A stretch of 64,000 bases of DNA, from positions 1 through 64,000 of the forward strand of contig NAVB01000054.1 of the NCBI GenBank assembly GCA_002179805.1, given 5' to 3'. The notes under the pieces are model-generated. The model worked only from the letters and a program-made list of their open reading frames with translations, searched no databases and had not been told where the DNA came from. Of this stretch, positions 37,606 to 52,312 are shown piece by piece (the stretch's first letter is position 1; every line of letters starts with the position of its first letter). This DNA is from Acanthamoeba lenticulata. Lineage: Eukaryota; Discosea; Longamoebia; Acanthamoebidae. Position numbers and translations under genes: made by a program.

Positions 37606-38339
37606 TTACCAGCGATCGCAGGCAGGGTAGCAGTTGGAGGAGTCGGGGCAGTAATCACCGGCGCTGGGGTAGACGCCGTAGGCATCAGGCAGGCACTTGT
37701 GGCCATCGGCGTACTTGACGCCCACGGAGGTAGACACGGGGTAGCAGCTGAACTGATCAGGGTAGTAGAAGCCGTTGGCGATCCAACGCGGGCAGCATCC
37801 TTGGGCGTCGGGCTGCTGGCCGTTGGCACACTTGTGGTCCTTGGTGGTAGTCTTGGGTGGGTAGTACTCCTTGGTGGTCTTGTAGTCCTCCGTTGTGGTC
37901 TTGGGCGGGTAGTGCTGGGTGGTAGTCTTCTGCTCGCTGGTGGTCTTGGGCGGGTAGTACTGCGTAGTGGTCTTCTCCTCGCTGGTCGTCTTGGGTGGGT
38001 AGTACTCCTTGGTGGTGGTCTTGTAGTCCTCCGTCGTGGTGTGGGGCGGGTAGTGATCCTCAGTCGTGGTCTTCGGGGGGTAGTGCTCATGGGTGGTGGT
38101 CTTCCAGTCCTTGGTCGTGGTGGAGGGGCAAGACGGCTTATCTCCCTTGCACACCTTGACGCACTTCCAGTAGCACTTGGACTCGTCATCATCGTCGGAC
38201 TGACAAGCTGGTTTCGGTCAGAAAAAACGTCAACAAGCGAATCGAAGCAGAAAGCGGGGAAGGAGCACTCAGTACCTCGCACTGAGCTGATGAAGACCAA
38301 AGCCAGAAGGCCGAACAGGACGATCACCGAGAGCTTCAT
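37606..38339 (-). CDS. Secreted Thr/Lys/His-rich protein with eight-cysteine C-terminal domain
   Basis: Exon 1 encodes a signal peptide (MKLSVIVLFGLLALVFISSV). A phase-1 intron (about 38212-38276) leads to ACQSDDDDESKCYWKCVKVC, a five-cysteine N-terminal block. The middle is a repeat of units such as YYPPKTTSEEKTTTQ and HYPPKTTTEDYKTT, about ten copies. The C-terminal 75 residues (CANGQQPDAQGCCPRWIANG ... ending NCYPACDRW) contain eight cysteines, including a CC pair. Secreted proteins with eight-Cys domains and Thr/Lys/His-rich spacers are known from the Acanthamoeba cyst wall (Leo lectins). The resemblance here is by composition and cysteine count only. A cellulose- or wall-binding role is inferred, not shown. 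Confidence 0.75.
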
Positions 38340-38545
38340 TCTGTCTGCTAGAATAGTAGCTTGTTTGGTTGTGTTGGCTGTTTAGCTGCTGATGAGGCTT
38401 TGATCCCGGCCATTTTAAAGAAGGTTCTCCCGAGGCCGGTGCATCAACACACCAAACAATAAAACACCTTGGTGATTCAAAACACACCAACATGGTGTCG
38501 ATTTCAAAGCTCCAGTGTGAAAGGGCACGCATCCATGACGCTTCT

Positions 38546-38634
38546 CTCGAATTCCGCAAACAGTGATTCCGTTCCTGCTGTACAGTTGTTGCCAACAGGG
38601 CGTATCCGCGCGCCTGTTGCTTTCAGGCCTGAGC
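38546..38634 (+). repeat. 89 bp dispersed repeat, copy 1
   Basis: Starts CTCGAATTCCGCAAACAGTG and ends TTTCAGGCCTGAGC. Hand alignment to 52697-52785 gives 85 of 89 identical bases, all differences lying within 15 bp, and the match stops abruptly at both ends. Here it lies upstream of the eight-cysteine gene in non-coding sequence. Confidence 0.9.
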
Positions 38635-38730
38635 ATTTTTTGAACAGTCTTGACTGTCTTCAATAAGCACAATAAAAGCTAATGGAGATAAAAAAGGAAA
38701 AGCAATTAGAACTACTCCAACCCACTTCTT

Positions 38731-39500
38731 TTGCCCTCACACCACCCTTTACCCAAAAGTTGGATGCATTTTAATCATTGTTACACCATGTACTTAGCTG
38801 GCCTGATCAATCATTTTACTGGCAAGAATCTTTATTGGCATCCTCAACATGCTTGGCTAAAAGACTCCAACTTCATCATTACCACCCTTTTCAACCACCT
38901 TCACTTTCATTTTTCCAAAGCTCATGTTTAGGTTTCTTCCCACAGGAATCTTCAATATGCAATGCATTTCACCATGACCCCTGGGTTCTGGGTGGCCATT
39001 CACCCTGATGAAAGTGAGGCAAACTGTTTTCAAGACCTTTGGATTGGCAAAATTCTTGAAGTTCACCACCAGAATTTGCTTGTCCACTGGTGGGAGAAAA
39101 AACATGAAACTAACCAACACACACAACTCCCACACAATACTTTCCTTTCTTGTGGCTTCAACTTTGACCCAGAAGTTGGAGTTGAGCCAGAGACCATCCA
39201 CTTGATTTATCAGAATTATTGATGTTGACAACTTTTTTTTTAATAAATCTTCTTTTTTTTTCTTTTTTCATCTTGTTGCACACAATTTTATTTCATGTTT
39301 TTTGCATTTTTTGTACAAATTTCATTTTTTTAGTTCAGAATCTGTACATTTTTCAGGCATGGTCAAAAAACCAGGCAGTGCCTCTTTTTTCTGAACACCT
39401 GGTTCAATTCCACTGTGCTCCTGGCCAGTGGGTGGCCATTCATCTTGATGACCATGAAGCCACAGAAGACTTTTGGCTTGCCAAAATCTTTTAAGTGCAA
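38731..39500 (+). other. AT-rich remnant with two related motif copies
   Basis: Two plus-strand open frames carry related peptides: FTMTPGFWVAIHPDESEANC continuing FQDLWIGKILEVHHQNLLVH (38962-39222), and FHCAPGQWVAIHLDDHEATE continuing DFWLAKIF (within 39360-39494). The shared pattern is P-G-x-W-V-A-I-H-x-D-(D/E)-x-E-A...(F/L)W-(I/L)-(G/A)-K-I. It is reminiscent of short SH3-like modules in protist transposon-associated open frames. No transposase, terminal repeats or target duplication were found, so mobile origin is only a possibility. Confidence 0.4.
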
Positions 39501-39594
39501 AGAAAAAGTATCATTGTCATTTTTTTCTGGACATTTTGTTATTACTTCTTATTACCAAACATATTTTCCCACTTGAAAAAAGCAGCCAGCGTGC

Positions 39595-39775
39595 TCTTGT
39601 CGTTGTCATCCTCGTCACTGTAGTCACGTTTCTTCCAGATGTGGCCGTCGCTCTTCTGCGCGTTGGAATCGTCATCCTAGTCGTCGTGGTCGCGCTTCTT
39701 CCTGTTGTGGCCATCGCTCTTCTTCACGTTGTCATCGTCCTTGTCGTCGTGGTCAAGCTTCTTCCCATTACCCCC
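39595..39775 (-). repeat. Imperfect tandem repeat, decayed coding repeat
   Basis: Three diverged units of about 60 bp. Read on the minus strand they encode variants of KKSDGHNRKKRDHDD and DDDN-type segments, but one unit carries an in-frame TAG. This looks like a relic of an exon for an acidic/basic repeat, not a live gene. The plus-strand reading gives only a Val/Leu-rich shadow. Confidence 0.55.
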
Positions 39776-39921
39776 AATGACAGCTTGTGGCACCCTAAGA
39801 CTTTTATGTTTGTGGGTGCTCATTTAGTGAGGGGTGGGAGAACGCCTGTGTGTGGCACCCTCAGGCAAGTCCCACTTGTTTCTATTTTTGTTGAACCTGG
39901 AAAATCACTCAAGATTGCCCA

Positions 39922-42900
39922 TCAAAAGCATACAACCTTCTTAGGGAAGCCACTGATCTCCTCAGAGCCTGACTGAGAGCAGTACCACACATGCAGAAGA
40001 TATTCGCCTGGGCTTGCCAGCACCACCTGGGCCATCGCAATGTTTTTAGCCTCAATCATGGAGATGGCAATGTGGCGTCGAGACTTTGCCTCTCCTGAGC
40101 AGACAAAGACAAGTAGCTCGGAGATATTGAACTGTTGATCAACTCGCCTGGGGGCAATTTTGAGGGTGAAACTGTGCCCCACTCTTGTCACAGATGGTAC
40201 TCCGACGCCAAAGAAACCTGCAGTTCCTTTTCCCCATTAGTTAGTGGGCCTTGCTGTGTTCCGCCAAGAGGACGCACCCTTTGCTAGAAGGTGTTTGGCG
40301 ATGGCTCGCAAGTCTTCTGCATGATCTGCGATACACTGCTGCGCAGCATCCTTGAGGAGCTGGAGATTGTGTGAGTCCGTGGCATCCAGAGGCAATGGCT
40401 GCGTGAGTTCCGGATTGAGACGGAAGTAGGGCACGCCGTCCTGCCTTGCTTTGGTCTGCAGGAGAGAGTAAGCCAGATCGGTGTGGATCACAGGATCAAT
40501 AGGCTTACCTCTGCAGTCTTGTGCACAGCGGCGGTATCGGCAATGAAGGTGGCCAACCGGGAGAGGAGTGAGAAGAGGAACCTGTCTCTTCCAAGATCTG
40601 TGGCCTTTGTCAAACCTGTCCCTAGCGAGACAATGATGTCCACCTTGCCTTGTGGACAGAGTTGGCTGGCTTCGTTCCAAGCGAATTGAGTTGGGTTGTT
40701 GGCCACTAAGCCACCATCTTCAAGCTTGTACTTGCCTATAGAACACTGGCATATTAGAAGTCAAGTTCTGATTCTGGTTGCTGGCTGATGGCGCACCAAT
40801 CTTGAACGGAGCCAAGTACGTCGGAGCGGCGGAGGTGGCTCGAGCTGCTTGCCAGGCATACACGTTACCATTTGAGCCTGCCAACGAGGTGTAATTACGG
40901 AAGAGGTATGGATTCTGGCAATTTGTGGCCACCGTCAGCACCTGTTTGACAAAAGGTCAGATGGCTCGCTCTCACACACGCGGAAGACCGAGGCAAGTAA
41001 TCTGGACCTTAACGGTGCTTGGCTGATTGAGGCGACAGTTCCTCATGTGGTTTTTCAACAACCACAGGAGGCTTGTGTCAACGTAGCGGTAATGGCGGAA
41101 GATGAGAGAGAGAGTCTTGATGATCTCGCCACTGTAGAAGATGTCGGGACCGTAGGTGGCGTAGAAATCTTCCATAAGCTTCAGAGGGAGCCCACAGTGG
41201 CCCACCCCCAGGGCAATAATTCCGCCAGTGCTGGTACCAGCTATGAAATCAAACAGGTCGGCCACCTGCATGGAATACGTGGTGAGGCCTCATCCAAACG
41301 GAACAACTTCTACTGTTAAACGGAAATAATGGTTCAGAGTACCTGGCTTGATGTCACACGCTCAATCTCGTTGAGAAGGTATATTTCCAACAGCCCTCGA
41401 ATTCCTCCGCCGTCCAAGGACAGCACTCTGGGGGTAAAGAAGGGCACTTCGCCTGAATTGGAGATTCATTAGTCTCACATCCACTGGCCACACCAAGTGT
41501 GAGGACAAAAAAGGCACCTGAGCTTGTTTGCCAGCGCCCGCACGCTGGACAAGGCACCAGCTTGAGTTCGTCGCTGGAGATGTTGGTGCAGCACTCATGG
41601 CACAGTTGATGGCCGCACCATAGAGACTTGAGAGAGAACTTCATTTCGTTAAGCACGGTGGGCTTGCTGTGTAGGCACAGGCAGCAGCGTTTGTCCAGCT
41701 CGCGGGCGTAGGCCAGGTTGTACTTGCGCCGGATCACACCCCATAGATCGAGCAACTTTTGGTAGAGCCGCCGGACCGGAAAGTGCTGTCGTGGAGGGTG
41801 CAATCTCAGATAAGCTAACATCAATTTGACATAACTAAAGACCTTTTTGGTCTCGGACCTTGTAATCAGCGCACAACCTGGCATACTGTTCATGAAGCAG
41901 AAGAGCTGAAAGTCCCTTGGTCGCAGCAGCTTTCTTGAATCTCTCTTTGGTGTCCGGGTCGTTCCTCCACCTCAATGCGTTCCCTGATAAGGTAGTGCGT
42001 GTGAGCATCAAGTGATTTAGCAATTCTATGCAGTACCTGTAAGCTCAATCATTGCTCGATGTTGATCATGTCCGGACCTGAGCTGCACACAAGTGTGCTT
42101 CTTCCCCTTCACGCTCTTGCAGGAGCCACAGGGGGCTAGTTGCTCTATTCGCTCAAGCAATTTCTCAAGTTCCTACCAAAAAGGCAAAAACTCAAAGTCA
42201 TCAGGAGCTTCTTGCAAGAGAGACAATTGGTTGTGTTGTACCACTTGAGGGTCGCCTGGATAGATGTTTGACAAAATGGCAAGAAATTCAGCTGCATGTG
42301 GACGGCAGCCGAAGAAGTCGTCCGCTTGGCGAGCCGAACACCCATAGATGATCCGGAACAGCTGTTCACTGTGGTCAAAAGAGGAGTCAGGCGAACATTC
42401 ATATCATTTAATGCACAGTCAGCAAAAAGGGGTGGGTCTACGCTAGGGACAAGCTGCAGTCGTCCAGTTCAGTCCCTTGGGCAGTGAGGCATAAGGAGCT
42501 CACGTGAGCGTCATGTAGGTTTTCTATCACCTCTTGGACGCTGGTCAACCAAGCAGTGCCAGAAATTGAACAGTTGAACGTCTGCTTGTGCTGGTGGTGC
42601 GCCCTTACGAGCTGGGGAAGAAGCTCCTGTAGACATTACGATATATCAGCCTCAAAAGCGAACAGGGCGGGGATATTTGAGAACACATGCCGAGAGTAGC
42701 GTAAGCTGTGCTTGAAAGTTGGGCATTTCCTGGTAGGGGAGCTCGATGCACTTGACTTGGTGAAAGCAGTCGCTGAGTAGGCCATCCGGGTCATGGTTGG
42801 TCAAGAACCTCTCGGTGAGTTCCTCCACGGTGCTAAGGTCGTCATTGCTGCTCTTGTTGGCAATGATCAAGAGCGAAGGCTGGGTGGCTAAGCTACCAAC

Positions 42901-43639
42901 CATGCGACCAGCTTGCTTCGCTAGACCAGCTACATTGATGAAGCTCTGATTGACAGCCAAATTCTCAACCGTCACGTACACTAGGACGTCGCTGACTAGG
43001 TACGCCAGCCTGAAGGAGGAACCAAATTAAAAGGAGTGGGTAAATGCGGCCAGGTGGTGATCGGGTATGCATTACCGTGGCATAAAGAAGGACACAGCGG
43101 CGTTGCGTTGCTCCGCGTAGTCTCCTCCTTCCCTCGCCGATTCCTGTTTGTTTGTTTGTTTGTTTGTTTTTTTTTTTTTTTGGTCAGACAAGACGCGCCA
43201 TTAGTGGTGGCCTGGGAAAAGGAAGCAACTGCGTACATCGGCAATGGGACATCCCTTGGCGTTCGTGCCCTCCAAGTCCAGCATCACAACGTCTACTTCA
43301 TTATTGAGGCGTGATGGATAGGCATTTACCCCAGCGGTTGTAGGTTGGAGTGTCACCCCACTCACTTGAGGTTGACGCTGCCTGCAAATAAAACCATTTG
43401 GTGAGGCTAAATGTGCCATGGGTGGTGGGCGGAGTATAAGACCTTTCTTCGCCAAGAAGGCCCAAGATGAAGCTCTTTCCTGCATGTGTATCCCCGAAGA
43501 AGCTTACACACCCGAGGGGTGATTCCTTCACCCAAGACTTCCACTGCGCCCATGCTTCTTCATGGAGAGATAAGCCAAGGTTGGCGAAAAAGGCCAGCTT
43601 CGCTGGTAAGGTGTCCGCCTGCGCTTCGAGTTTTTCCAT
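39922..43639 (-). CDS. P-loop GTPase, RING, patatin phospholipase and Ig-like domain protein
   Basis: The gene has a dozen or more exons. After the start MEKLEAQADTLPAKLAFFAN comes CVSFFGDTHAGKSFILGLLG with the P-loop GDTHAGKS. A phase-1 intron leads to DVVMLDLEGTNAKGCP (G3-like DLEG), then SDVLVYVTVENLAVN and PSLLIIANKSSNDD (G4-like NK). A Cys/His cluster APCGSCKSVKGKKHTC follows. The RING finger is CCLCLHSKPTVLN, then LWCGHQLCHECC and PCPACGRW. The patatin part has VLSLDGGGIRGLLEIYL (oxyanion loop), DFIAGTSTGGIIALGVGH (nucleophile serine in GTSTG) and KYKLEDGGLVANNPTQFAWN (catalytic aspartate in DGG), so the catalytic dyad is intact. The C-terminus (FTLKIAPRR ... ASPGEYLLHVWYC ... EEISGFPKKVV) looks like a filamin-type Ig repeat. 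Unlike its two neighbours it lacks B-boxes. The GTPase most resembles GBP/VLIG-like members by its DxEG motif. Confidence 0.75.
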
Positions 43640-43862
43640 TTGCCTCGCGCCAAAGCTTCCGCTCTCTTTTTATCAGCTCGCCGAGCAACAGTCACTGTGT
43701 GGCCACAGTCACTGTCGCCATGGCAATAGCAATGCCTAGTTACACGATTGCAAGGAAACTAGACTCAGAGCAACTGTAAATCGGCCAAGTCCTCACGTGT
43801 GCGCGGATAGGTTCAAATTTATACGACTGCAAAAAATCTATTTAAGGAAAAATTTGCTGCGC

Positions 43863-46800
43863 TCAAGTGCGGGAAGTAACAACGTGCAAGAAGCGCAGCG
43901 TGGGCGTCTTGGTCTCGCAGTCAAGCATTACGTCAGGGTAGGCGTCAGTGCTTTGGCTGTCTTGCTTCAGGTAGTGGTTGAGTACTTGGGCGGCGCTGCT
44001 TCGGGACTTAGCCTCTACCGGCCAACAACTTGTAATCATCTCCGCATATTGAGCAGGGACGTGGGCTGCGATGGTTGGACGCTCGTTACGCTGTGCTTTC
44101 GCCATGACCTCAGCTGGCTTATCGCCTGGCCACAGCTCGCGGCCGTGTGCTGCCTCGTAGATTAAAACACCATACGCGTACATGTCCACGGCTGTGGATA
44201 GTTGGAAGTCGAACAGCTCCGGGGCCATGTACTGCACTGTTAAGACGAAAAATGGAGTCACTGCCACACACAAGGCCGCACTAGGCACATCTTCCATGAT
44301 TCTTACCTGTACCGCGAATCTTCTTGATTTCTCTGCTCTCCTTGTCCATCACCCTCTTGGCAATACCGAAGTCGGTAAGCTTGAACACCAGCTTTCCCTC
44401 ACGTCCACGATCGACCTGCCAGACTGTGTCAGCCTAAGGAAGTCAACAAGGCGCCATAGGACATACCAAGATGTTGGATAGTTTAACGTCACAGTGGACA
44501 ACGCCGGTCTGGTGGAGAAAGCTCAAAGCTTTCGCCACATGTTTCGCAAGCCTGATCACCACAACACATGAGAACCATAAATAACATTTCATTTTCATGG
44601 GATCTGTCGTGCTTGCCTGTGCAGATTGGTTTGCCAATCCTTTCCAAACTCGCCAGTACGAATCATCTGACGAGCATCTCCTCCAGGGATGAAGGGCAGC
44701 ACCAAGCCCAGTCGGTCACCCTGGGCTGGGTCTTTCCAGTAGCCCACAGGGCACATGATGTGCTTGTGGCTAAGTTGCCTGCAACAAGGGAGACGTACAT
44801 CAAATAAGTTGAGAACGAAACAAGCATTGAGCATTGTGTCCATAAAAGTACTTCATCATTGTGGCTTCCTTCCAGAACGCTTTCTGGGACTCGAAGTTGT
44901 GGATCATGGCCACCTTTATAGCCCACTGTGTTGACGGTTCGTTCTTCCTCTCAGCCAAATAAACGTTGGCGTAGCTTCCGCTCCCAATGTTCTTCCCGAG
45001 AGTGAGCCCTGTGATTTGATGCTAATCACAAACAGCAGTTAGCGGAAGCGGTCTATTTTTCAGGATGAGGGCAGAAGTACCAGGACACTCTCTTGATCGT
45101 TTTTTAGCTCGCCTTTCAAACAAATGGGGCATTTAATGAGAGATATGGTCTCTCCTGTTTGCGAGAAGTAGTTCCTCGCTTCCTTCTTCATCAGGCAATA
45201 GACTGCGCAGGGTTGGCACAGTAGCTTGCACTTACTAACAAAAAAACCAAGCCTTGAGTCATTGAGAGGGACAAAGAGAAAGTTGTAGGCAGGAACCCTG
45301 TACCAAGAGGCGGCCACCTGACGCGGCTTCAGCAGGCAGAAGAGGCAGTTCAGATCCTCCGGCAATTGAACCTTGGCTTTACCTCTTTGCGGGATGCCTT
45401 TTAGCACGGAGAAGGCTACTGGCCGGATCTCTGTTTCCTGGGGTCAAGTGATTGTGAGCATTGTGCCACTCTTGTTAGCAGTATTGCTAGTTGAAAACGG
45501 GAGTGGAACCTGCTGCATCTGGGCGTAGATGGTGTCAAAGTGGTTTTGGCTGAACGTTGGAGGGGTCTCCCAAGTGCCACCCCACTCAACGGTCATTGAA
45601 ATGTTAATGTTGAACAACTGGAAGCACTTGATCGCTGAGTGCAGGAAAGAGTTAGCCCGCCAAAAAGAAATAAAAAAAGAGAAAAAACAGCAAAATTCTT
45701 ACCTCGAACAAAAAAAGAGTCTCCAGCCATCCTACGCGTGACGAGAGGGCGTGAGATATGGGTCCTACAGTCCTGGTGGGTGCTGTTTGTACGGGTGCAG
45801 TAAATTCTCTTCCCGTCCTTGGTAGTCCCCGTGTGTTCTGCCCAGCAAGGACTTAGCATCTGCATTTGGAGAGAGAGAGAGAATTAAGACACTCGAGTGG
45901 GGAAGAGGCAGATCAAGCATGGCACCTGTAGCGCTTCGCTGAGCTTGTTCCCTGCCTGTTTGACCAGAGGGTCGTTAGCCAGGGACCGCTTCTCTCCCTG
46001 TCACATTGGTTAGTTAGCTGTGACCTACAGTAGTCTTTAACCAACCACTTGCGAAGAGTAAAGGACTCACGTGTTGTTGCTTGCTCTCTTCTGCCTTGAC
46101 AAGTGAGGTAAACACATGCCAGGTCTGTTTTTCGAAGCTCATGTAGGTATACCGGGACGGGTGGTAGTCTAAGAGTTTCATCAACAGCCAGCTGTGCAGA
46201 ACATCATCAGCGCGACAAGTTGAAGCAGAACGTATGGTGGAGGAAAAGAAACGAACGTTTGGTGAGCAATGGGGTTGTTGAAGGTTATTAACTTCATGTC
46301 GATATCTCCCCGGCGTAGTCCGCTCTGGTGGGTCTCAGGGAACGCCAGCCGATCGACAGCGTGCTGGAGGAGTTTACACCAGCTGTGCTCGCTCAAGAGG
46401 TGCTTGTGCGTGGTCAGTTGTTGGTACTGCTGGGCTGTGACTGACTTGAGTAACTTGTCAAAGCTCTGTATCTGTTGTTGGTGTAAGCTTGGCCAGTCGT
46501 CTATTTGGTGATGGAGAAAGACTCAAGCTGTAAGGTCCACCAAACAAGCTACAGTCAAGAGTGTGGGTACATACTGTATGGAACTGAGATTACATTGACC
46601 GATGCGAAGTGGTTGAGCAAATTCCTTTTGGGGTCGTGGGTATTAAGAAAAGAAGTTGTGCAATCATCGACATCGAAGATAGCATCACTTTTTCCACACT
46701 TGTTGCGGACGATGATAAGCGCTGGTTTTCGTCCTGCGTCGGTAACCAAGGTAGTGGCAGACGACTGCGCGAATTCCATGGCCTTCTTCCACAACCGTCA

Positions 46801-48002
46801 CGCCATAATTGTGAGCAGCCAAAAATATATGGGGTATCTTGGTGTTTGTTTACCTTGTTGGCATGTTCAGCTACAGCTAGATCACCTTGCAGTACGTAGA
46901 CCAGTATGTCCGCCACAAAATAAGCCAAGCTAGGGAACACCTTGTCTACCACTAGATTTCGCTGCTTCGCCACCCCTTGTTGATCGTCTGGCCTCTTTAA
47001 TCGGTCCCACCGTATGCCCTGTTATCCCGCATACTCATGATCAGCAAGTTCAAAAGAAATTAATACCAAACAAAAAAGTTGTGAGTCAATCATGGGTGGC
47101 GGTTGAGTGTACCCGTGGTAGAATGTTGCTCGCCGAGAAGCCTTCCATATCAAGAAGGCGAAGGTTGCCCACGGTCCATGGATTGGGGACATGGTAAAGA
47201 TGAATGTCGGAAGTGGTAGCCGCGTGGTCCTTTGGCAGCGCCACCATGGCCCTGTTTAGATTATTAATATTGTCCGCGTAACAGGCAAGCCGTGACTGTC
47301 TGCGAGGGGTGGTGCGCCTTTTTCCCAAGCTGTGGAGGTCCATAAAGGCGTTGATCATGGTCGACTTGCCTGCGTGCGTGGCCCCCGTAAAGCACACCAC
47401 AGGCGAGAATACTGAGTGCTTGGAGCGTGTGAGACATCGCTCAAAGGTTTTTGTCGTGAGAGCAACTTGAAACTTTTCGTTGATGTGCACCAGTTCCGTC
47501 TGAGACAACCAAAAAAAAAGCTCCCGATCAGCACCACACAGAGGCACGGAGAAGAGAGAAGGTCACCTGCTCATGCTGGTAGATTTTATCCACCTCATCG
47601 AAGGTGGGGGCCACGTCGCCAGCTGCCCTCCCAAATAAAATGGTAAATGCGGAGCTTGTAGAGACGAGAGAGGAAAGTGAAGAGAGTACTTTCACTGGCA
47701 ACGCGCAAAAGAAACCAGGTGTGCCCTCGCCTAGTTGCGCCAGTGTGTGTGGACACTTTGCAATGGGCACAGAACCCGACTTCGCAGCTCTCACACCAAT
47801 ACATGGCGTGCAGGGTGCATTCGGTGCAGTCCATGGGCTGGTCGATGGTTCGCGTCTGGAGGTTGAGTTGCGCTTTTGTGTGGTTCTTGAGCTTCCCAAC
47901 GCGGTGCAGTCGCGGCCAGCACTCATCGCAGTAGTCAGCCTCGCACTCGTCGCAGTGCCACACCGCTTCTTCGTTCTGGCACCCCTCGCAGCTACTTGCC
48001 AT
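43863..48002 (-). CDS. Tandem B-box, P-loop GTPase, RING-like and protein kinase fusion
   Basis: Starts MASSCEGCQNEEAVWHCDEC, two consecutive B-box-type zinc fingers (second: CTECTLHAMYWCESCEVGFC). TELVHINEKFQVALTTKT introduces the GTPase: VVCFTGATHAGKSTMINAFM (G1), NPWTVGNLRLLDMEGFSAS (G3 DMEG), LAYFVADILVYVLQGDLAVA and RKPALIIVRNKCGKSD (G4-like RNK). A Cys/His cluster has SPCWAEHTGTTKDGKRIYC and STHQDCRTH. A RING-like module has LNCLFCLLKP, CKLLCQPCAVYC and IKCPICLKG. The kinase has a Gly loop NIGSGSYANVYLAE, lysine WAIKVAMI, helix C glutamate AFWKEATMMK, catalytic loop VVHCDVKLSNILV (HCD for HRD), DFG in FKLTDFGIAKRV and QYMAPELFD. All catalytic residues are present. The order matches the divergent paralogue gene by gene segment, which supports one long transcript with at least fifteen exons. 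Confidence 0.75.
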
Positions 48003-48261
48003 CGTGCCAAAGAGTAGTCTAGCTTGGTGTGATTGCAGAAATTACACAAAAGAAGAAGAAACAAGGGAACCATAAACTGCGGGTGTAACTGGTTTACCGG
48101 TGTCAGAAGAACGTCACCGGTTTACGACCGCAACACTGGGCAACAAGCGTTGTCCGGGGCCACCTGCAGCACCGGTACCGGTTGCCTCCTCATCTCCTCC
48201 GCCGCGATACTTATTTCCACACCAGCCCAAACCAGCGAGAAGACAGGACCAAGCAGCAACA
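48003..48261. promoter_or_regulatory. Shared upstream region of the two B-box GTPase-kinase genes
   Basis: This 259 bp gap lies between the divergent start codons of the two paralogues. It contains a repeated TACCGGT-type core: GGTTTACCGG near 48091 and CGGTTTACGA near 48118, plus ACCGGTACCGGTTG near 48170. Co-regulation of the pair is likely from the layout. No known operator is recognised. Confidence 0.45.
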
Positions 48262-51200
48262 ATGTCCATCTGCTGCGATTGTGAGCGGGAATCCGCCCAG
48301 TGGAGTTGCACGTTGTGTGACGTCGAGTTGTGCGAAGGGTGTTGGGTGCAGCTTCACCGTGTAGGTAAGCTGAAAGTCCACCCGAAGCTCAGCCTCTCTA
48401 CCAGTCAGGCGACGGACCTCACGGCGGAGGAGCAGGCCATGAAAAGGCAGGGCTGCTCAACCTGCGAGCGACTCATCGCCGCTCTGTGGTGTCGACAGTG
48501 TAAGGCTGCCTTTTGTGCGCACTGCCACACGACGGCAGAACCTGAACCGCACACCCTCCTGCCCATCGCAAGCGGTTCGCCTCACCGACTATTTTCTATT
48601 TTCCGCATTTTACCGTAAGCTTTTTGCTAACCTTGCCTTGCTTGACTTTAGCTGCCGACACTCCAGAGGCTAGCTCCCAAATTGGTTCGTTGCTTGCCAC
48701 CCGCTCGCTTCAGGTACATGTGCCTTGTCCAGTGAGTTGACGCCGCGTCCCTGATAACCAACTTTATTTGTTTCAGACCGAGCTCGTCCATGTAAACGAA
48801 CGGTTTCAGGTGGATTTGACGGCAAAGAGATTTTCGGCCTTGATGAGTTCGTCCGTGGACTACGCCTGCTCCCCCGTGATATGCTTCACTGGAGCCACAC
48901 ACGCAGGCAAGTCGTCCATGATCAACTCCTTCATGACCTACCATCGCCAAGAGCCACCGTGCGACCTCCCTTCTTTTTCTTTTGCAACCTTGCCCATCCT
49001 CTCCTACATGACCGTGTTAACCACCGCTGGTCCACAGGGCTCTTGTATCTGTTCCAGGCGACCTGGCTCCCACAACTGCCGACATACATCTTTACCAACT
49101 GCAAAATCCATGGACCACAGGGAATTTGCGTCTGTTGGACATGGAAGGCTTTTCCGCGGCTGTCCAACTCCCTCGGGTATGCTCTTTGAGGACATAGAGC
49201 GTACTGTTGTTCACTCACACCTCATGTGTAGGGCCTGAGATGGGACCTTGTCAAGGAGGAGGATCGTGAAGGCGCCGCCCTGGAGAGGAACAAGGTCGTG
49301 GATCAACAGTACCCGCGCTTGGCCTATTTTATCTCGGATGTGCTGGTCTATGTTGTTCAGGGAGATCTGGCTGTTGCAGACCACGCACGAACGGTAAGAA
49401 ACTCTCATTCCTCCTTTAGCACTAGTCTATGCACTTCTTCCTGATCAGCGTTGTGAGCTCCAGGCCATACGGTTTGCACAGCAGGCCACGATTGGTGTCA
49501 GGCAAGGTGCGCGAAAGCCTGCGCTAATTCTGATTCGAAACAAATGCGGCCGGGAGGACGTAATCATGGACGTCAAGAAGTGCACTTCCCAGTTCCTCGA
49601 CATTCACGACCCCGAGCAGCAGTTAGGCGCCATCTACTCGTCAGTGTCCGTGCTCACCATGCCTCTAGGTACGCAAATATCGGACTTTGTCACTCACTCA
49701 GCATTAGGGTTGTGCACCAACTAAAGTTATGTATCCCAGAGGACTATCCAGAGCTGTACTGCGCCCAACTGGGTGCATTCGTGGAGCTGCTGAGAGAAAC
49801 CGTTGAGAAGCAGAACAAGTTCTTGAGGCAAAACCAAATGATGCTGAGCGAGCACAGATGGTGTCGCCTGGTGGCCCAAGCCGTTGAGAGCCTCAACGGA
49901 ACACTAGATGGAGGGGCCATCAGTATGCGGATCATTGAACCTTTTGATCCGATAGCAACCAAAGTGTGCGTTTTTCTCTACGAAGTTCTCTCCGTTCCAT
50001 TGGATTTGTGCTGAACCATAACACATAGGTGGCGGTTCCTAAACCTGTTCAAACTGGAAGTGAAACCGGCCGGATACCGCAGCTTGGTCCATAAAGCCAT
50101 CACCATCTTCACCGCTCTAGTATTGGCAGAAGAACGCAAGCAGGTAGGTGTTCCTCTGTGGGTTAAAGGGAAATGTAACGCCCTGCAGACATTCACTCCT
50201 TGTCAGGTAAACGGGAGAAGCATGGCAAACGACCCAAGAATTCTACAGGCTCTCGAGGAGTTGGGAAGACATTTGAAGGTATGTCGGGCACTTTCATGAC
50301 GCTGCGCTGTCTGTGACCACTAAGCATGCTACGTATAGAACAGAGCTCCATGCACTGCGGAGAAAAACGGGGTCCGCTGTGGTCTAAACGTGCACAATCA
50401 CGGCAACTGCCATGCTGCTGAATCGCAACCAATACGAGAGTTGGTGCAAAAAGGTGAGAACCTTTTCCTCTACCGTTTGCCTAAGGTATCTAAAAATTCT
50501 CATCCACATTAACAGTGGTTACGTTTTGGGTGCTCCGCCAGGATGATCACTGGCCCGGATCTGTGGAGCCTCTTCCAGCCATTGACATCACTCAAATGTA
50601 TACTACGCAGTATAGGAATCTGACGGAGGTACTTCTTTTGATAGATACTCAGCATGAAGTGAATCTTAATCGCCACTATCCTCAGCAGGAATCATCCTTG
50701 CCGAAGGTGTTCCACTGGGTGATCGGAGAGTTAGCGGACAGCTCCACTGGTCCTAGGCTACGCAAGGAGAAAACCTGCCCTTTCTGCCTGGAGAATGAGG
50801 CAAACGGAGCGAGCTACCACTGGTACTGTCTACTCTGAAACTGGTGCCATGGCTACTAACAAGAGCGTTCCCCTTCAAGTGGCTTGGCCCTGTGCCGCTT
50901 CTGCTCCGAAGTTTTCCACACCCACAGGATCCCATGTCCGCTTTGTACGGAAAGCTGCAGGCTCTCAGGGAGAAGGGTATATAATTCTCGCTGGTGTCAC
51001 CCTTCGGATTTTTCAGAATAATTCTTGTGTTGCAATAGTCTGCAGGTCATTTCAAGGTGCTTGGCGGAGAGTTCCCAACAATGCAAGGACAAACAATGGT
51101 GACTGTATGGGAACAGTGCTCACCGCGGTTCTGGGACAACGCTCAAATTTGGGGGTAAGGTCTCAGCGTGCAACTCTTGGCTGTCAGATGGCGACTTACC

Positions 51201-52312
51201 CTATCACTCTACTCAGCGCCGTGCCAAGAAATCCCAGCACCATCGAATTGTTTTCGGTGTGGCAACCTGCCTGGCAACCTTACCGGCTGGGCTTGGTGAT
51301 GGAACACACAAACGGGGGTACTCTAAGAGACTGGATCATCAACGGGCACTATGCCCCCAGCTGGCAGACTAACACGCGCATGTACGCTTCACAGTTCATT
51401 GTTGACTTACCATGGGCAATCGCATGACTCACCTACCTCCTTCTCTCCAGTTTAATCCAAAGCTTAAGCTATGCGCTCAAAACCTTGCACGCCAGCAACA
51501 TAGTGCACTGCGGTGTCACGTTGTCCAACATAATGGTACCAAGAGCGCGCCCCTGGCATACCCCCCCCCCATACATTAACAACAAAGATTACAACAGGTC
51601 CACCACTCGTACAATGATGTCAGTTTCAAATTAGCCGGCTTTACAAATGCCTACCTGATCGAACAGGGCTATACTACGGAAGAGGCCCCCGTGATCACTG
51701 GAAATGGTGCGGTCTTCAAACTCTTTCCATCTCTTGGAGTTCTTTCTCCTTACCCTGCTCGCAGTCCAGTACATGGCACCAGAGCTGTTCACTACGTTCC
51801 GTGTCTCTAAAGCGGTGGACATCTACGCATTTGGAGTTCTTCTCTTCGAAGCTGTGCATGCGCGAGAGCCGTGGCCGATGACAAGCGACGCTGATGTTGT
51901 GCGCAAGAACACCAGGAGAGAGAAGTTGGCCTTTGGGACGCACATACCAGCTACCATCAAGAAGCTCATCTCCAGGTGTCGAAAGAAGCCTAAGAACCGA
52001 CCAACTGCAGAGGCTCTGCTCAGCAGTGGAGACCTCGAGTTCAGTACCTACCAAGAGTATCCTGACAAGCCTGCGTTTGCACCGGAAGGTTGTACAACTC
52101 TTAGCAAGTGCCCTCTCTACATGAAGAAGAAGAAGCCCAAACCGGAAGTCGCGAGGAGCACCAGCAACGTGGAGCCGGAGATCATTCCTTCTGCCGAGGA
52201 AGCCAGCCCGACGCCCTGGCTGCCCGAACCATCAAACTTATCTTCACCGCGTTCCAGGCGTGAAGACTTCTTTCCATGTGTTAGGCTAGTGCCACAGGCT
52301 TCCCAGCCTTGA
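48262..52312 (+). CDS. Tandem B-box, P-loop GTPase, RING-like and pseudokinase fusion
   Basis: Paralogue of the divergent neighbour. It starts MSICCDCERESAQWSCTLCD, with tandem B-boxes (second: CSTCERLIAALWCRQCKAAF). The GTPase has VICFTGATHAGKSSMINSFM, NPWTTGNLRLLDMEGFSAA, LAYFISDVLVYVVQGDLAVA and RKPALILIRNKCGRED. Next are the Cys/His cluster APCTAEKNGVRCGLN with HNHGNCH, and a RING-like module (KTCPFCLENE, then LALCRFCSEVFHTHRIPCPL). The kinase-like part has lost key residues. The lysine strand reads MVTV where the neighbour has AIKV. Helix C reads FWDNAQIW for FWKEATMM. The catalytic loop is IVHCGVTLSNIM (Asp to Gly, Lys to Thr) and DFG is FKLAGFTNA. The fold markers QYMAPELFTTF and VDIYAFGVLLFEAVHAREPW remain. 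It is therefore predicted catalytically dead but folded. The C-terminal tail is Lys/Pro/Ser-rich. Confidence 0.75.

What the first reader, a model, noticed from the sequence alone, without database searches (positions are those of the whole stretch)
39922..52312. Cluster of three effector-swapped GTPase genes: a candidate immune-like module family
Seen in sequence: three adjacent genes share the order P-loop GTPase (G1 GDTHAGKS or GATHAGKS, G3 DLEG or DMEG, G4-like NK), Cys/His cluster, RING-like module, then a different C-terminal effector (patatin phospholipase, kinase, degenerate kinase). Two also carry tandem B-boxes. Known: DxEG is typical of GBP, VLIG and related large GTPases; B-box/RING pairs occur in TRIM proteins; patatin and kinase effectors are coupled to sensors in bacterial and plant immunity. 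Inference: a conserved sensing core with exchangeable outputs, possibly for detecting intracellular bacteria or viruses, which these amoebae meet constantly. I know of no described system with this exact layout.
Basis: partly seen in the sequence, partly recalled or inferred. Interest (0 to 1): 0.92.

Follow-up and report, generated by a model that had tools for sequence, protein, structure and literature searches.

The report
Amoeba GTPase-RING proteins with swapped effectors
Three neighbouring amoeba genes each join a GTP-binding switch and zinc-binding modules to a different working end (a lipid-cutting enzyme, a protein kinase, or a dead-looking kinase), and full-length relatives from other sources show that the switch-plus-kinase layout is real; what the proteins do, including any role in defence, is untested.

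Summary
Three intact multi-exon genes fill 39922-52312. A (- strand): GTPase, Cys/His cluster, RING-like module, patatin phospholipase. B (-) and C (+), head to head: two B-boxes, GTPase, Cys/His cluster, RING-like module, then a kinase with its catalytic motifs (B) or a pseudokinase (C). One further member (D) was found in this Acanthamoeba genome, and four long proteins from unnamed public sources carry GTPase, Cys/His cluster, RING, RING and kinase in single frames, so the fusion is not a gene-model artefact. The GTPase parts are homologous to each other, to D and to those proteins. Kinase is the usual output; the patatin of A is the one clear swap. No Pfam family claims the GTPase above cut-off. 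By profile it is nearest to guanylate-binding proteins (GBP), then IRG; tested dynamin segments score like shuffles. Its G4 motif lacks the usual Asp. The genome's true GBP and IRG genes lie on other contigs. I read it as a GBP-like switch on a RING scaffold with exchangeable outputs. An immune role is plausible but untested; ordinary membrane or ubiquitin signalling is the main rival. Six open-access literature searches listed no paper describing this architecture.

The parts
39922..43639 (-). Gene A, 925 aa, 15 exons
   Evidence: spliced model, no stops
42513..43594 (-). A: GTPase part; G1 43472-43495, G3 43267-43278, G4-like 42847-42858
42065..42133 (-). A: Cys/His cluster
   Evidence: weak profile match to relatives, probability 53
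41540..41686 (-). A: RING-like module
   Evidence: sub-threshold Pfam; hhalign 84.6 to RING1, 83.1 to RING2
40213..41429 (-). A: patatin phospholipase with DGGGIRG, GTSTG and DGG motifs
   Evidence: Pfam 2.3e-20; motifs; iPLA2beta 1.5e-21 in PDB
39925..40215 (-). A: C-terminal extension of unknown fold
   Evidence: single exon, no Pfam match
43863..48002 (-). Gene B, 995 aa, 18 exons
   Evidence: spliced model, no stops
47718..47993 (-). B: two B-boxes (47877-47993, 47718-47831)
46346..47490 (-). B: GTPase part; G1 47362-47385, G3 47140-47151, G4-like 46693-46704
45755..45850 (-). B: Cys/His cluster
   Evidence: weak, probability 20
45120..45347 (-). B: RING-like remnant
   Evidence: Cys pattern by inspection only; no profile support
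43974..45021 (-). B: protein kinase with AIK, HCD and DFG
   Evidence: Pfam 1.1e-46; motifs
48003..48261 (.). 259-base gap between the start codons of B and C (head to head; possible shared promoter, not tested)
   Evidence: coordinates
48262..52312 (+). Gene C, 1010 aa, 17 exons
   Evidence: spliced model, no stops
48271..48552 (+). C: two B-boxes (48271-48384, 48451-48552)
48786..49885 (+). C: GTPase part; G1 48891-48914, G3 49138-49149, G4-like 49539-49550
50348..50419 (+). C: Cys/His cluster
   Evidence: weak, probability 70
50776..50946 (+). C: RING-like module, His replaced by Leu
   Evidence: hhalign 91.8 to RING1 of relatives
51042..52024 (+). C: pseudokinase (HCG for HxD, AGF for DFG, ATP-binding Lys motif not found)
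   Evidence: Pfam 3.4e-24; motifs

Best explanation
The locus holds three members of a small, apparently undescribed family of multi-domain proteins in amoebae. The shared core is a P-loop GTPase nearest to the GBP branch, followed by a helical stretch, a Cys/His cluster and a RING or RING remnant. The C-terminal end is the output: usually a protein kinase, in gene A a patatin phospholipase. Shown here: the gene structures, the homology of the cores, the same layout in single frames elsewhere, and which catalytic motifs are kept or lost. Inferred mechanism: nucleotide-driven self-assembly of the GTPase, probably on a membrane as GBPs do, gathers the RING modules and C-terminal enzymes. Gathered patatins (A) would cut membrane phospholipids; gathered kinases (B) would phosphorylate, with the pseudokinase C, encoded head to head with B, as regulator or decoy. 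The likely setting is a cell-autonomous response to engulfed or invading microbes or to damaged endosomes; this last step is the least certain.
For: Homologous GTPase cores. Single-frame relatives P0001, P0026, P0027, P0028 with GTPase, RING and kinase. No start codon for a separate A patatin or B kinase. Family profile scores 53.8 against a host GBP exon, 43.2 and 40.7 against two IRG frames, 30 P-loop-keeping shuffles 17.5-25.0. Patatin motifs intact and nearest to iPLA2beta and to bacterial CBASS patatins. Kinase lost in C while kept in its sister B. Cluster genes have low GC3 (0.63, 0.65, 0.63 against 0.96 in a D exon), as might fit a fast-changing locus. GBP self-assembly on pathogen membranes: PMC8565484, passages.
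Against: No expression, infection or biochemical data. The long relatives are well conserved (44-54% overall), which fits housekeeping as well as defence. G4 lacks Asp, so GTP specificity is not assured. RING remnants in A, B and C may not bind zinc. GBP likeness rests on one host GBP exon; a second, cut before DxEG, scored only 27.3, PDB matches were not significant and structure prediction failed (mean pLDDT 40.8).
Confidence: 0.42

Rival explanations
1. Ordinary intracellular signalling or membrane-remodelling proteins, in the manner of RNF112, atlastin or Roco kinases, with no immune role; the patatin of A serves lipid signalling.
For: The long kinase-bearing relatives are conserved (44-54%) and D keeps the high GC3 of ordinary genes (0.96 in one exon). 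RNF112 joins a RING to an atlastin-like GTPase and works in neurons (PMC12012479, passages). The genome has separate true GBP and IRG genes.
Against: Repeated kinase decay (C, D, P0028), a patatin swap and low-GC3 divergent copies at one locus are less usual for housekeeping genes.
Confidence: 0.42
2. Lineage-specific duplicates on the way to loss, with little present function.
For: C has a pseudokinase; the RING modules of A, B and C are worn; the B search found no close relative among proteins of 567-1804 aa in the protein database.
Against: All three keep open frames of 925-1010 aa across 15-18 exons, intact G1, DxEG and NK motifs, an intact patatin (A) and an intact kinase (B).
Confidence: 0.1
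3. Gene-model artefact: GTPase and effector parts are separate transcripts.
For: No transcript from this organism was available. For the second part of the C kinase four in-frame ATGs exist upstream in the unspliced frame.
Against: No in-frame ATG between the upstream stop and the A patatin or the B kinase, and RING and effector lie only 126 and 99 bases apart. GTPase and kinase share one frame in four of four outside relatives. No outside relative with GTPase and patatin was found, so for A the argument rests on its own sequence.
Confidence: 0.04

Closest known systems
Guanylate-binding proteins (true copies here at G000:C607)
   Same: G1 GxxxxGKS, DxEG, a shared stretch before G1; best profile match
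   Different: No Pfam GBP match; NK at G4; RING, Cys/His cluster and a C-terminal enzyme
RNF112 (neurolastin)
   Same: RING and a GBP/atlastin-like GTPase in one protein (PMC12012479, passages)
   Different: No kinase, patatin or B-box (recalled); domain order differs (recalled)
Immunity-related GTPases (IRG; copies here at C1223 and C221)
   Same: P-loop GTPase; second-best profile match
   Different: No Pfam IIGP match; DxPG-type G3 in the host frame aligned, DxEG here
Roco proteins
   Same: GTPase and kinase in one chain
   Different: No Roc or COR in Pfam; RING and Cys/His modules between GTPase and kinase
TRIM proteins
   Same: RING and B-boxes in one protein (B, C)
   Different: B-boxes at the N-terminus, RING-like module more than 500 residues later with the GTPase between
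CBASS patatin effectors (CapV) and iPLA2beta
   Same: Patatin catalytic domain of A
   Different: No cyclic-nucleotide partner looked for; fused here to a GTPase-RING core

Membership tests
GBP | Match to Pfam GBP (PF02263) | tested here: not met
   A, B, C not listed at E up to 5; genome search finds GBP only at C607, 5 of 5 matches
GBP | GxxxxGKS and DxEG | tested here: met
GBP | RD-type G4 in place of NKxD (recalled) | tested here: not met
   NKSS/NKCG/NKCG
GBP | Profile similarity of the G domain | tested here: inconclusive
   one exon 53.8 (probability 94.2), a truncated second exon 27.3, shuffles 17.5-25.0; two further GBP exons not tested
GBP | Extended C-terminal helical domain after the G domain | tested here: inconclusive
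   model of a relative too poor to use
IRG | Match to Pfam IIGP (PF05049) | tested here: not met
   (3 of 3 matches elsewhere)
Dynamin | Match to Pfam Dynamin_N (PF00350) | tested here: not met
   22 matches, none on C51 or C1002; four segments score 19.1-25.9, like shuffles, but were cut by introns
RNF112-type | C3HC4 RING plus GBP/atlastin-like GTPase | tested here: inconclusive
   RING above cut-off in D and the four relatives, not in A, B, C; GTPase likeness by profile only
RNF112-type | Membrane anchor (recalled) | not tested
   -
Roco | Roc and COR domains before the kinase | tested here: not met
   neither listed by Pfam for A, B, C
TRIM | RING, B-box, coiled coil in that order at the N-terminus (recalled) | tested here: not met
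   domain order
Patatin phospholipase (effector of A) | Oxyanion DGGGxR, GxSxG and DGG motifs | tested here: met
   Pfam 2.3e-20
Active protein kinase (effector of B) | PF00069 above cut-off with AIK, HxD and DFG | tested here: met
   159.8 bits, motifs; activity itself not tested
Active protein kinase (effector of C) | HxD and DFG | tested here: not met
   HCG and AGF
Immune system component | Induction by, or resistance to, microbes | not testable with these tools
   -

The most novel reading that the evidence does not exclude
Amoebae own an undescribed immune-type module family: a GBP-like GTPase sensor fused to RING scaffolding, with C-terminal effectors that can be exchanged between kinase and membrane-attacking phospholipase; a eukaryotic single-protein counterpart of the effector-swapped defence systems of bacteria.
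Probability: 0.28. Interest if true: 0.86.

Novelty: new variant of a known kind. Interest (0 to 1): 0.62.

Why it matters
If the core works like a GBP, these proteins would be a GBP-like switch wired within one chain to ubiquitin-type, kinase or phospholipase outputs, in single-celled hosts that meet intracellular microbes without interferon. The patatin copy allows a simple test: does nucleotide-driven assembly switch on a phospholipase? If it is ordinary signalling instead, it is still an unusual GTPase-RING-kinase architecture with a natural output swap.

Tried and rejected
Rejected: GBP, IRG, dynamin, Roco and TRIM membership. Rejected: three unrelated GTPases. No sign of a viral or prokaryotic source: with the GTPase alignment, 0 of 26 pattern matches in viral contigs and 0 of 22 in genome contigs were confirmed; these scans reach only fairly close relatives.

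Uninformative: the third protein search returned nothing from 8000 scored candidates, not even proteins present in its own query, so its silence means little. PDB profile searches gave nothing significant (A2: best 1.6; A4: best 0.007 GTPase Der, then Sey1 0.028, Irga6 0.086, atlastin 0.15). AlphaFold2 on the relatives' GTPase alignment gave mean pLDDT 40.8; its fold search could not be queued. The tree supports only B with C; A and D are long branches. Rfam: nothing in the window. For the genus, the first cofilin-type locus gave no PDB match and the second was coactosin-like.
Full report
Setting. The window is bases 1-64000 of contig C51 (93,541 bases) of an unnamed 48.5 Mb assembly in 1825 contigs. 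The genus is Acanthamoeba: an exon of its actophorin agrees with PDB entry 1AHQ at 80 of 84 residues (counted by eye; that 1AHQ is from A. castellanii is recalled).

Gene models. A splice-aware dynamic program found long spliced frames without homology. I then fixed the junctions by eye against P0001 and against each other: A 925 aa in 15 exons, B 995 aa in 18, C 1010 aa in 17, no internal stops, 47 introns of 45-94 nt, 46 GT-AG and one GC-AG. Sense scores of 131.6, 132.9 and 122.7 compare with 9.6, 20.1 and 17.0 antisense and at most 12.8 in 30 mononucleotide shuffles; the codon weights came from these loci, so the contrast is flattered. B and C (17 and 16 introns) share 10 introns at the same alignment column and phase and 15 within six columns at the same phase; they were curated with sight of each other, so this is support, not proof. 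A shares one exact intron position (column 632, phase 2) with both.

One protein or several. Read upstream without splicing, the A patatin meets a stop after 39 bases and the B kinase after 30, with no ATG between, so neither can start there by itself. For C the test is silent on the second part of the kinase (four in-frame ATGs upstream). P0001 (1558 aa), P0026 (1707), P0027 (1625) and P0028 (1902) hold GTPase, RING and kinase in one frame. P0001, P0026 and P0027 bear transcript-assembly names (TRINITY, 'ORF type:complete'); P0028 lies on a 5,767-base contig. Their organisms are not named. None has a patatin, so the A fusion rests on its own sequence.

The family. With B as query, P0001 was the only one of 25 hits that reached beyond the kinase; the other 24 carry kinase domains and cover 19-26% of the query. 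With P0001 (residues 1-660) as query, 4 of 6,723 candidates scored, one being P0001 itself. In this genome the B query finds D at C1002 (E 7.0e-10) and A (1.0e-9); the A query finds D (7.9e-15) and B (2.5e-4); the D query finds A, C and B (3.2e-10, 4.3e-5, 2.4e-4) and, over the RING region only, C204 and C1188. D has RING1 above cut-off and a kinase (1.6e-15) with HKN for HxD and MSFG for DFG; its RING2 is seen by eye only. All eight GTPase rows keep F-x-G-x-T-H-x-G-K-S, a Thr, D-x-E-G and N-K. The tree supports only B with C (100/100), so the three cluster genes are not shown to be a clade.

Outputs. Kinase motifs are kept in B and, by eye, in P0001, P0026 and P0027; they are lost in C, D and P0028. 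C is sister to B, and P0028 is close to the intact P proteins, so decay happened at least twice (inference). The B kinase reaches 31% at most over near-full-length matches elsewhere in the genome and 38% over shorter pieces (145 of 512 candidates scored). The A patatin end has one weak match elsewhere by direct protein search (C753, 34%, 1.7e-8), while the Pfam patatin model makes 15 matches genome-wide, one of them gene A. In solved structures it matches iPLA2beta (1.5e-21) and CBASS patatins such as CapV (3.2e-16), and PADLOC phospholipase effectors (9.8e-51).

What GTPase it is. Pfam gives only sub-threshold MMR_HSR1 (B 0.0014, C 0.00029). True GBP (C607), IRG (C1223, C221) and dynamin-type matches lie elsewhere and none falls on C51 or C1002. 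The eight-row profile scores 53.8 against a host GBP exon, 43.2 and 40.7 against two IRG frames, 27.3 against a second GBP exon cut before DxEG, and 19.1-25.9 against four dynamin-type segments that were cut by introns; 30 shuffles of the GBP segment with the P-loop kept score 17.5-25.0. The GBP match spans a stretch before G1, the P-loop and DxEG. This is likeness, not membership: G4 lacks Asp and Pfam GBP does not match. Structure prediction did not help.

Zinc modules. RING1 is above Pfam cut-off in D and in four of four P proteins but worn in A, B and C, and the Cys/His cluster is weak there. Ubiquitin-ligase activity is thus likely for the long members, possible for A and doubtful for B and C.

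Mechanism. GBPs self-assemble on GTP binding and can settle on pathogen membranes (PMC8565484, passages). A. castellanii was reported to encode two interferon-inducible GTPase homologues and a Roco GTPase (PMC4053784, passages). RNF112 couples a RING to an atlastin-like GTPase and is an E3 ligase (PMC12012479, passages). From these I infer nucleotide-driven assembly that gathers the C-terminal enzymes. The immune setting is a guess; against it stands the good conservation of the long members (44-54% overall; 52-58% over residues 1-660).

Literature. Six searches aimed at the architecture or its setting listed no paper whose title or visible abstract describes it; one search listed 10 of 13 papers, the others all they found. 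Searches looked for the Acanthamoeba genomes and RNF112. The library holds only open-licence papers.

Verdict.

Noticed in passing
G000:C607:11277-14675: Two true GBP-type genes, head to head, in the same genome.
   Followed up: partly
G000:C1223:9540-11437 and C221:33760-34137: Two IRG-type genes, head to head, and a third weaker match.
   Followed up: partly
window 38000-52000: GC is 0.45-0.54 here against 0.53-0.66 in most of the window; GC3 of A, B, C is 0.63-0.65 against 0.96 in a D exon.
   Followed up: partly
window 38932-39494 (+): Two similar short frames (PGFWVAIHPDE..., PGQWVAIHLDD...) just beyond gene A, perhaps remains of a repeat or element.
   Followed up: no
G000:C1002, beyond D (L037): By eye, a VPS9-like stretch and then a pyruvate kinase gene follow D in the splice model (names recalled, no profile run).
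   Followed up: no
P0026-P0028, about residues 1-200: N-terminal helical region, weakly SAM-like in P0028 (SAM_TNK, E 0.048, sub-threshold), absent from P0001 as deposited.
   Followed up: no
whole genome: 48 B-box matches; several contig pairs give equal hits (for example C204/C1188, C252/C403), suggesting leftover haplotype copies in the assembly.
   Followed up: no
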